Assembly (NCBI RefSeq): GCF_963675165.1
Contig: NC_087381.1
Coordinates: 310,001 to 374,000 of the forward strand
Direction: 5' to 3'
Length of the DNA: 64,000 nucleotides
Origin: Halichondria panicea
Lineage: Eukaryota > Porifera > Demospongiae > Suberitida > Halichondriidae
The notes under the pieces are model-generated. The model was not told where the DNA came from. It made no database searches and was given only the letters and a program-made list of their open reading frames with translations. Below are positions 4,581-8,335 of this stretch, in pieces (position 1 is the stretch's first letter; each line of letters opens with the position of its first letter). The position numbers were made by a program, and so were the translations under genes.

Positions 4581-7500
4581 ATGCAATTGTACGTTAAAAC
4601 CTTGACTGGTAAAACTATCATCCTTGAAGTAGAAGCCAGTAATACAATTGAAAATGTCAAGACTAAAATTCAAGACAAAGAAGGTATCCTACCACATTGG
4701 CAGCGTTTGATATTTGCTGGAAGAGATCTTGAGGATGGTAAAACATTGTCTGATTATAACATACAAAAAGAGAGCACACTTCATCTAGTACTTAGAGGAA
4801 TGGAATTGTACGTTAAACCCTTGACTGGTAAAATCATCACTCTTACAGTGAAAGCCAGTGATACAATTAAAAATGTCAAGACCAAAATTCTATACAAAAA
4901 AGGTGTCTCACCATATCATCAGCGTTTGATATTTGCTGGAAGAGAACTTGAGGATGGTCGAACATTGTCTGATTACAAAATTCGTAAGGACAGCACACTA
5001 GAACTTCGGCTCCGCGGAGGAATGCCAATAATTGTTAAAACCTTGACTGATAAAACCATCACTCTTAGAGTGGAAGTCAGTGATACAATTGAAAATGTCA
5101 AGACTAAAATCCAAGACAAAGAAGGTATCCCACCAGATCAGCAGCGTTTGATATTTGCTGGAAAACAACTTGAGGATGATGGTCGAACAGTGTCTGATTA
5201 TAACATACAAGAAGGGAGCACAATTCATCTAGTACTTAGGCCCCGCGGGGGAATGCAATTGAAAGTTAAAACCCTGACTGGTAAAACCATCACCCTTGAA
5301 GTGGAAGCCAGTGACATAATCGAAAATGTCAAGACTAAAATTCAAGACAAAGAAGGTATCCCACCAGATCAGCAGAGTTTGATATTTGCTGGAAGAGAAC
5401 TTGAGGATGGTCGAACATTGTCTGATTACAAAATTCGTAAGGAGAGCATACTAGAACTTGTACTTTGGCGAATGCCAATAATTGTTAAAACCTTGACTGG
5501 TAAAACCATCACCCTTGACGTGGAAGCCAGTGATACAATTGAAAATGTCAAGATCAAAATTCAAGACAAAGAAGGTATCCCACCAGATCAGCAGCGTTTA
5601 ATATTTGCTGGAAAACAACTTGAGGATGGTCGAACATTGTCTGATTATAACATACAAAAAGAGAGCACACTTCATCTAGTACTTAGGCTCCGCAGTGGAA
5701 TGCAAGTGAAACTTAAAACCCTGACTGGTAAAACCACCACCCTTGAAGTGGAAGCCAGTGACATAATCGAAAATGTCAAGACTAAAATTCAAGACAAAGA
5801 AGGTATCCCACCAGATCAGCAGCGTTTGATATTTGCTGGAAGAGAACTTGAGGATGGTCGAACATTGTCTGATTACAAAATTCGTAAGGAGAGCATACTA
5901 GAACTTATACTTTGGCTCCCCGGAGGAATTGACGTGGAAGCCAGTGATACAATTGAAAATGTCAAGACTAAAATTCAAGACAAAGAAGGTATCCCACCAG
6001 ATCGGCAGCGTTTAATATTTGCTGGAAAACAACTTGAGGATGGTCGAACATTGTCTGATTATAGCATACAAAAGGAGAGCACACTTCATCTAGTACTAGA
6101 AATGCAATTGAAGGTTAAAACCCTGACTGGTAAAACGATCACTCTTAGAGTGGATTCCAGTGACACAATCGAAGATGTCAAGACTAAAATTCAAGACAAA
6201 GAAGGTATCCCACCAGATCAGCAGTGTTTGATATTTTCTGGAAAACAACTTGAAGATGGTCGAACATTATCTGAATACAATATACAAACGGAAAGCACAC
6301 TTGATCTAGTACTTGGAATGTATATACATGTATTTGTTAAAAACCTGACTGGTAAAACCATCATCCTTGAAGTTGAAACCAGTGACACAATTGAAAATGT
6401 CAAGACTAAAATTCAAGATAAAGAAGGTATATCATGTGATCAACAGTCACTGCATTTGATATATGCTGGCCATGAACTTGAGGAAGGTCGAACATTGTCT
6501 GATTACAACATTCTAAAAGAGGCTAGTCTTTGTTTAGTATCAAGACTCAGAATAATGGACATCCCTGTTCATCTGCCCAATGGGGAATCTTTGTTTCTTG
6601 ATATTGAACCAACAAGTACAGTAAGAAAATGCAAAGACTTAGTGCAAAGTAAAGTGCCAACAATTTCAGCTGAGCAAATAGACATAGTGATTAATGGAAT
6701 AATACTTTCTGATGAGGATTGTATAGACATAACCCGAAGGCAGACTTTTTACATTGTTCGCAAAAACGGGACTATTCGATTAAACGTCTTTTCTAGAGAT
6801 CAAACCCAATTACTCACAACACTCAATGTTCACCCTGATGAAGTAATGATGTCATTAAAAGCAAGAATATCCGCTGCAGTTACAGACCACCCTCTTCCAA
6901 GTGAGCAGAGACTATTACTGGCTAAAGACCATCCAATTGGCTCCGAGAGTTTTAGGGCTGATAACTTTTGGATTAATGGCAGTCAGCACGCTAACGTTTT
7001 ACTTTTGGATATTCTGAAATCATTTTATGTAAAGAGTTCTACCGGAAAAAATACAGAGGTGAAAATTTCCACTAACTGCCGAATCTACGATCTCAAAATG
7101 GAGATACAGCGAGTAGATGAACAGCACCTCGAGCCGAGTAGACAACAACTGTTATATTGTTGTATTAATGGATGTGAAATATTGGAAAATGAGCAGTTGA
7201 TATCTCGTTTTCCGTGCGGATCAATTTCACTTCACCTTTGTAAGTTGAATATTTAAGTGTATTTATTATACAGTTACTATACATGTGTGTTATACATTCT
7301 ACAGATGAGGATGACTTCGTTAGTCAACTAGATGCTGGCCGTTTATCGAGGGAAAAGAGACAAATTACGTGTACACTGGATAATGCGAGCATCCAAGTTA
7401 CCCCTTTAATGGAGATCACAGGAGAAGAAACAATCTCAATTGGCATAAATACTTACAGCACTTCAAAACCTTCTTTCTCATTTCCACAAGGCTGCTCTCT

Positions 7501-8335
7501 GTACAGAAATGTCTACAAGTTAAAAATGTCAACAAGTGACCAATATTTGCGTGATAGAGCAAGAATACAGTTCAAATTCCAACAACCTTGCAGCGGAAAA
7601 AATTTTCATATCTTGCAAGCATCTTGTACTCCTACGCACTGGGAAGCAAATCTCACTCCTGTGTTCAAATTTTCTCTGATTGGCGCCCAAAACACCCAAC
7701 AACAAGATGCACTAATATCAGCCACATTGAATATATCCAACTGCTACGTTGTTTTAGCAGGTATATATATCGATATACATACCGTAAATACATGCAGCGC
7801 TATATATAATGTATAATAATTTACCTTACAGAAATACCACAACAAGCAGCAGCTCTCATATCAGAGTTTTATGGGACGGTATTTGGGGCAAATCTGTTGG
7901 AAAGAGAGAGCAGCTCAAGTAAGTACAAATTGACAGACTTGTGGATAACAATTATGATTTGTATTAACTTGTGCAGGTTGCAACACTGACTTGCAGGTCA
8001 CTCCGAGTGTAAGAGACGATATAGAAGTGCTAACAGGCATAACCTTAACAGACGAGCAGCTGGACACCGAAATCCAAGATATTATTATGCTAGCTGAATT
8101 TTTTGACGACCCTATGAACTATGTAGAGAAACTAGGCCTTACTAGAGCCGACAGCAATGATGTCAGGCAAAAAAGAATCGATGGAACTCAAGCAGCTATG
8201 TGCCTAGCCCTAACAAAATGGCGTGACTATAATCCAGGTGCAGCTACTTTCAGAGCACTGCTAAAAATATTAATGGAACTCCGAAAACAACATGTGGCTA
8301 AAGACATTTGCGATTTCATTTCAGGCAAATTTTAA
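4581..8335 (+). CDS. Tandem ubiquitin-like repeat protein with C-terminal Death domain
   Basis: Four exons joined by GT-AG introns in consistent phase: 4581-7239, 7305-7760, 7832-7918, 7977-8335; 1186 residues. Residues 1 to about 657 contain nine clear ubiquitin-like domains, starting near residues 1, 74, 148, 225, 298, 374, 450, 508 and 580. The seventh lacks its first strands. Three more divergent ones follow to about 887. A beta-rich segment (about 888-1065) is not recognised. The last exon encodes a Death fold (about 1095-1180) with the helix pattern around [13 protein letters not shown] and [12 protein letters not shown]. The start is the ubiquitin-like [11 protein letters not shown]. 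Most repeats lack a complete LRLRGG tail; only the second ends in LRLRGG, and the third in LRPRGG. The protein is therefore probably not a simple processed polyubiquitin. By family knowledge, Death domains nucleate signalling complexes; a role as a built-in linear ubiquitin-like scaffold is inference. Confidence 0.85.

What the first reader, a model, noticed from the sequence alone, without database searches (positions are those of the whole stretch)
4581..8335. Tandem ubiquitin-like array fused to a Death domain in one gene
Four exons with agreeing phases join nine clear plus about three divergent ubiquitin-like domains to a beta-rich region and a Death domain. Known biology couples linear ubiquitin chains to Death-domain signalling in trans; a protein with a genetically encoded, mostly uncleavable ubiquitin-like chain attached to a Death domain would be a scaffold architecture I do not know from described families.
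Basis: partly seen in the sequence, partly recalled or inferred. Interest (0 to 1): 0.92.

Follow-up and report, generated by a model that had tools for sequence, protein, structure and literature searches.

The report
Ubiquitin-chain and Death-domain fusion gene family
An animal gene in this window encodes one protein with twelve ubiquitin-like beads followed by a cell-death signalling domain, and it belongs to a small family in the same genome in which different cell-death domains sit behind similar bead chains, probably ready-made scaffolds for innate immune or cell-death signalling.

Summary
Four exons (4581-8335, GT-AG, phase-1 introns) join in frame into 1186 aa: nine units 71-93% identical to the genome's own ubiquitin, three divergent ones, a beta-rich domain and a Death domain (Pfam 24.6 bits on exons 3-4, cut-off 22.6; 20.4 on the whole protein). 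The beta-rich domain has no Pfam hit but matches ZU5 by profile comparison (probability 70%; 40 shuffles at most 1.3%). The gene is not unique: seven genes of this 131-Mb genome align over its divergent trio, and an eighth is a broken twin of one of them. Two of these seven end in a Death exon and five in CARD-like exons (one broken). Shared intron positions suggest that the terminal domain was exchanged. Only 2 of 11 unit junctions keep GG|M, so the chain should resist deubiquitinases. The F4 face read in linear chains is altered: a ubiquitin-like array, not a faithful linear-ubiquitin mimic. Precedent: a 2021 paper mentions polyubiquitin and UPA-ZU5 fusions to TRADD-N proteins. I rate it a new variant of a known kind, most likely a multivalent scaffold for death-fold signalling. 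Function is inferred; there are no expression data and no usable structure.

The parts
4581..7239 (+). Exon 1: twelve ubiquitin-like units
   Evidence: Single open frame; Pfam ubiquitin; donor position shared with L043, L044, L045, L047 and L048
4581..6554 (+). Units 1-9, close to ubiquitin (starts 4581, 4800, 5022, 5253, 5472, 5700, 5928, 6102, 6318); unit 7 lacks its first residues
   Evidence: 71-93% identity to own polyubiquitin; eight direct-repeat copies spaced 186-231 nt
6555..7239 (+). Units 10-12: divergent trio, the shared signature of the family (starts 6555, 6771, 7017)
   Evidence: Pfam ubiquitin E 6e-13; aligned in 8 genes of this genome, L051 with its third unit truncated
4800..5252 (+). 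Units 2 and 3, the only ones that end in GG before Met (LRLRGG|M and LRPRGG|M): possible deubiquitinase sites
7305..7760 (+). Exon 2: beta-rich ZU5-like domain
   Evidence: No Pfam hit; 3 paralogues at 35-36% identity; hhalign to 13 own-genome ZU5 exons probability 70.3, 40 shuffles at most 1.3
7832..7918 (+). Exon 3: short linker, weakly similar to the start of the CARD-like exon of L043-L045
   Evidence: Alignment; phase-1 introns on both sides
7977..8335 (+). Exon 4: Death domain (aa 1115-1178 by Pfam) and stop

Best explanation
A functional animal gene, one of a family of nine found in this genome, encoding an intracellular signalling scaffold. The N-terminal array is a genetically encoded, mostly deubiquitinase-resistant chain of ubiquitin folds that offers many copies of the L8/I44/V70 hydrophobic surface to proteins with ubiquitin-binding domains. 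The trio of divergent units and the ZU5-like domain form a conserved core. The C-terminal Death domain joins or nucleates Death-domain assemblies; paralogues carry a CARD-like domain there instead. The protein would cluster ubiquitin-reading adaptors on a death-fold complex without a ligase having to build the chain. Shown: gene model by sequence, domains, family, shared intron positions, loss of GG|M junctions, different terminal domains. Inferred: cytosolic location, binding partners, scaffold role, immune or cell-death output, exchange of the terminal exon.
For: Single frame over four exons. Ubiquitin and Death by Pfam. ZU5-like middle. Relatives with the same trio, shared phase-1 introns and different terminal domains. 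CARD-like set of four against own CARD exons: probability 85.9, 40 shuffles at most 0.92. Constraint: against own polyubiquitin dN 0.075-0.205 with synonymous sites saturated; window against L043 over trio plus middle dN 0.546, dS 1.832; fold core substituted in 11 of 122 cells against 99 of 623 over residues 1-71; no stops. I44 kept in 9 of 9 units and L8 in 8 of 8 that have the position. Possible readers: 14 matches to the NEMO CC2-LZ model in the genome, none over the curated cut-off.
Against: No expression, interaction or structure data: the exon-2 model had pLDDT 31.8 and the exon-4 job failed. The Death score is marginal, and the Death family profile finds no Death chain among solved structures at E up to 1. 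The pair L043/L044 alone does not match CARD (2.7, below the 9.5 that its own shuffles reach). True polyubiquitin units differ by dN of at most 0.017, so the array is far less constrained than ubiquitin, and repeat pairs within it show dN/dS from about 0.4 to 1.7. H68 is changed in 5 of 9 units, and the I44 patch as a set is not better conserved than random positions (6487 of 10000 random sets as low). No relative was found outside this genome, but those collections hold viral and prokaryotic contigs.
Confidence: 0.5

Rival explanations
1. A cleavable precursor: deubiquitinases cut at the remaining GG|M sites, releasing ubiquitin-like pieces and a shorter Death-domain protein, as ubiquitin fusion precursors are cut.
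For: GG|M at junctions 2/3 and 3/4 here; L043 keeps three and L045 two LRLRGG|M junctions.
Against: 9 of 11 junctions between units here lack GG|M, and after cuts at both sites nine units would stay joined to the Death domain; L044, L046, L047, L048 and L051 have no LRLRGG|M (L044 has RLRGGG|M and L048 HGG|M).
Confidence: 0.15
2. A decaying or non-expressed chimera of polyubiquitin repeats with a Death exon, without function.
For: Weak constraint among repeat pairs (dN/dS about 0.4-1.7); two relatives have broken frames (L045 last exon; L050); a MITE-like palindrome lies about 100 bp upstream.
Against: 1186 codons and three introns intact; 0 of 500 simulations stop-free when 5% of bases are redrawn, though 31 of 500 at 2%; L043, L044 and L045 pairs dN/dS about 0.5 over trio plus middle, L047/L048 about 0.6.
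Confidence: 0.12
3. A decoy: the array draws microbial effectors that act on ubiquitin and the Death domain reports the attack, an integrated-decoy sensor.
For: Units drift on the surface while the core is kept; repeat turnover in the array; many Death exons in the genome (148 matches among 150 of 503 candidates scored).
Against: No direct evidence; no sensor NTPase among the Pfam matches.
Confidence: 0.13

Closest known systems
DEDD2-clade TRADD-N proteins with polyubiquitin or UPA-ZU5 fusions (PMC8195603, section 11 read)
   Same: Polyubiquitin joined to death-fold adaptor modules in animal lineage-specific families; ZU5 modules in the same repertoire
   Different: The text lists these fusions for TRADD-N proteins, usually with DED; no TRADD-N match appears for this protein in Pfam at E up to 1; here the order is array, trio, ZU5-like, Death
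PIDD1, UNC5CL, ankyrins (ZU5-UPA-Death proteins; recalled)
   Same: ZU5-type domain followed by a C-terminal Death domain
   Different: No UPA match in Pfam; the N-terminal part is a ubiquitin-like array
Polyubiquitin genes (own copies on C10, L053 and L054)
   Same: Likely source of units 1-9: tandem ubiquitin without introns between units
   Different: Units diverged, GG|M absent at 9 of 11 junctions, large C-terminal extension
Linear (M1) ubiquitin chains made by LUBAC and read by NEMO UBAN (recalled)
   Same: Head-to-tail ubiquitin folds working next to Death-domain signalling
   Different: Encoded in cis, altered F4 face and mostly lost RLRGG linkers

Membership tests
Death domain superfamily (PF00531) | Score above the curated cut-off | tested here: met
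   24.6 bits on exons 3-4 against 22.6, but 20.4 on the whole protein; 6 of 7 members of its own-genome family match Death at E up to 1
ZU5 domain proteins (PF00791) | Homology of exon 2 to ZU5 | tested here: inconclusive
   No Pfam hit; profile-profile probability 70.3 over 102 columns, 40 shuffles at most 1.3; exon-2 profile against three other profiles at most 0.7
ZU5-UPA-Death proteins (PIDD type) | UPA domain between ZU5 and Death | tested here: not met
   No UPA among the 23 Pfam matches at E up to 1; a divergent one could be missed
ZU5-UPA-Death proteins (PIDD type) | Self-cleavage F|S site on the last ZU5 strand (recalled) | tested here: inconclusive
   FxFS is invariant in the six sequences of A1; the global alignment puts the last ZU5 strand at NCYVVLA instead, beyond the confidently aligned part
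Polyubiquitin genes | Near-identical units with GG|M junctions and a short tail | tested here: not met
TRADD-N conflict proteins | TRADD-N domain | tested here: not met
   No TRADD-N family among Pfam matches at E up to 1; divergent versions could be missed
CARD at the end of paralogues L043, L044, L047, L048 | Homology to CARD (PF00619) | tested here: inconclusive
   Pfam E 0.14 for the L044 exon, below cut-off; no CARD match for the L043 and L048 exons (the L047 exon was not scanned). Profile comparison with 12 of 27 own CARD exons: 85.9 for all four, 69.7 for L047/L048, 2.7 for L043/L044 whose shuffles reach 9.5. APAF1 CARD chains at E 0.5-0.7 behind a Dps protein at 0.034
Linear-ubiquitin mimic | F4 face (Q2, F4, T12; residues recalled) kept in units | tested here: not met
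   12 of 24 cells substituted against 99 of 623 overall; 64 of 10000 random sets as high

The most novel reading that the evidence does not exclude
A family of cis-encoded ubiquitin-like chains that replaces ligase-made chains in death-fold signalling, with an exchangeable terminal Death or CARD exon and a ZU5-like middle that may cut itself (invariant FxFS) to release the death-fold fragment, in the manner of PIDD1 or NLRP1.
Probability: 0.12. Interest if true: 0.85.

Novelty: new variant of a known kind. Interest (0 to 1): 0.58.

Why it matters
In studied animals ubiquitin chains are attached to death-fold complexes by ligases and removed by deubiquitinases (established knowledge, recalled). 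A gene family that hard-wires a mostly uncleavable ubiquitin-like array to Death or CARD-like domains would offer a natural test of what the chain does as a pure scaffold, and shows how one animal genome combines these modules behind phase-1 introns.

Tried and rejected
Structure of exon 2: AlphaFold2 on the single sequence gave pLDDT 31.8 and was not used for a fold search. Solved-structure searches: exon-2 profile, one match, E 0.5, a xylanase; CARD-like profile, 13 matches, first a Dps protein at 0.034, then APAF1 CARD chains at 0.5-0.7; Death profile, three myoglobins at 0.75-0.8 and no Death chain. Relatives outside the genome: none confirmed in viral contigs with A1 (95 pattern matches) or in genome contigs with A4 (26 pattern matches); each scan used two peptide patterns, and an animal gene is not expected there. 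Taxon: a cathepsin/silicatein check was undecided, so 'sponge' is not established. Self-cleavage at FxFS: not supported by the alignment, not excluded. OTULIN-type peptidase PF16218: no match, but nothing rang in the controls either, so absence is not shown. A bacterial-type promoter scan before the start codon found nothing and says nothing here. Papers: PMC2575513 searched for ubiquitin, UBQ and ZU5, 0 occurrences; PMC5560861, passages only, nothing relevant. Statements about print rest on the listings in one open-access library.

Full report
Gene. ATG 4581 to TAA 8335 in four exons gives 1186 aa; introns of 65, 71 and 58 bp are GT-AG and phase 1. Exon 1 lies in an 895-codon stop-to-stop frame. 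The window is C5:310001-374000 of a 131-Mb genome in 39 contigs. Introns and the many Death, CARD and ZU5 exons point to an animal; the species is not known.

Ubiquitin-like units. Units 1-9 are 62/73, 53/74, 66/76, 61/73, 71/76, 62/76, 53/58, 60/72 and 56/75 identical to the genome's own ubiquitin; units 10-12 are 20/71, 16/74 and 20/68. Pfam agrees. The array grew by repeat duplication: pairs 3/5, 4/6 and 5/7 have dS 0.02-0.12, while each of units 1-9 is saturated at synonymous sites against polyubiquitin with dN 0.075-0.205. So the array left polyubiquitin long ago and has stayed ubiquitin-like, with repeat turnover since. True polyubiquitin units differ by dN of at most 0.017, and pairs within the array show dN/dS of about 0.4-1.7 on few changes: constraint is much weaker than in ubiquitin itself.

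Junctions and surfaces. Of 11 junctions between units only 2/3 (LRLRGG|M) and 3/4 (LRPRGG|M) keep GG|M; 5/6 is RLRSG|M and 6/7 is WLPGG|I. I44 is kept in 9 of 9 units, L8 in 8 of 8 and V70 in 7 of 8 with a residue aligned, but H68 in only 4 of 9; as a four-residue set the I44 patch is not unusually conserved (6487 of 10000 random sets as low). The F4 face (residues recalled) is substituted in 12 of 24 cells against 99 of 623 overall (64 of 10000 random sets as high); the fold core in 11 of 122. K48 is kept in 4 of 9 units and K63 in 7 of 9. Units share duplication history, so these cells are not independent. The array should fold as ubiquitin and can offer I44-type surfaces, but is not a copy of an M1 chain.

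Middle domain. Exon 2 has no Pfam hit, nor have the middle domains of L043, L047 and L048. The genome holds three relatives at 35-36% identity, and L047/L048 a further version. PF00791 has 27 matches in the genome; 13 of them, 12 fetched and one inside L048, were aligned. hhalign of the six middle domains with these gives probability 70.3, P 4e-5, 102 columns; 40 column shuffles reach at most 1.31, and the middle domain against three other profiles at most 0.7. FxFS is invariant in the six sequences, but the global alignment does not place it at the last ZU5 strand.

Death domain. Above the Pfam cut-off on exons 3-4, below it on the whole protein. A genome search with exons 3-4 gives 149 other matches, being capped at 150 of 578 candidates. 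A candidate phase-1 acceptor stands before the Death exon in 17 of 18 loci examined (the window included; four of them also offer a phase-0 candidate); L050, with a broken frame, showed none. Several of these loci are near-copies of each other.

Family. Eight genes align over the divergent trio, L051 with its third unit truncated: window, L043, L044, L045, L046, L047, L048, L051; L050 is a broken twin of L051, seen by eye and not aligned. The window gene, L046 and L051 end in Death (L046 Pfam E 0.0036, below cut-off, and L051 no match; tblastn to the window Death 1.1e-16 and 2.3e-14); the exons of L051 between array and Death were not modelled. L043 and L044 end in a CARD-like exon and L045 in one with a broken frame; L047 and L048 have a CARD-like exon downstream whose linking exons I did not model. 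L049 is an array for which I saw no death fold among downstream frames, by eye. The first two introns have the same place in L043, L044 and L045, the first also in L047 and L048. Window exon 3 aligns weakly with the start of the CARD-like exon of L043-L045, so the terminal domain may have been exchanged behind it. CARD-likeness rests on the four-sequence profile (probability 85.9, shuffles at most 0.92) and is lost for L043/L044 alone (2.7, shuffles up to 9.5).

What it does. The most likely role is a scaffold that joins ubiquitin-reading proteins to Death assemblies. Fourteen CC2-LZ matches in the genome, none over the cut-off, hint at readers. Decoy, cleavable-precursor and non-functional readings stay open with lower weight.

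Known work. PMC8195603 (sections 10 and 11 read whole; other passages by search) lists fusions of DEDD2-clade TRADD-N domains to polyubiquitin and to UPA-ZU5, and 357 TRADD-N proteins in Amphimedon, most types with death-fold domains. PMC12909245 (passages) names UBQ among domains in a figure legend on Dysidea NLRs. The listings showed no paper whose title or abstract start describes this order; the full texts of most listed papers were not read.

Noticed in passing
window 4063-4479: MITE-like palindrome (arms about 80% identical overall) about 100 bp upstream of the start codon; 44 matches to one arm region in the genome, itself included, 40 of 280 candidates scored, some being two arms of one element.
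   Followed up: partly
window 247-1080, 1198-2028, 9078-9584, 10123-10965: Cluster of related genes around this gene that look like arylamine N-acetyltransferases (name recalled); the copy at 9078-9584 has stop codons and looks like a pseudogene.
   Followed up: partly
L052 (C17:4000500-4010400): Two frames with a ubiquitin-like domain followed by a possible ADP-ribosyltransferase-like region (label from memory).
   Followed up: no
L055 (C17:5171500-5181000): Ubiquitin-like unit followed by a cysteine-rich region that resembles an RBR ligase (label from memory).
   Followed up: no
L060 (C5:6055937-6056500): ZU5 exon with SFSWF on its last strand, as in self-cleaving ZU5 proteins (recalled); L061, L065 and L066 have RFS there.
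   Followed up: no
L086 (C9:2570213-2570782): Cathepsin-like protein with SSWAF where L081 has CGSCWAF: Cys to Ser as in silicateins (recalled), but DRS where L084 has DHA.
   Followed up: no
L049 (C2:8052800-8062500): Single-frame gene of about 690 aa made of divergent ubiquitin-like units, with no death fold seen nearby by eye.
   Followed up: partly
C1:4856851-5182025 of the genome: Cluster of NEMO CC2-LZ-like matches (9 of the 14, all below cut-off).
   Followed up: no
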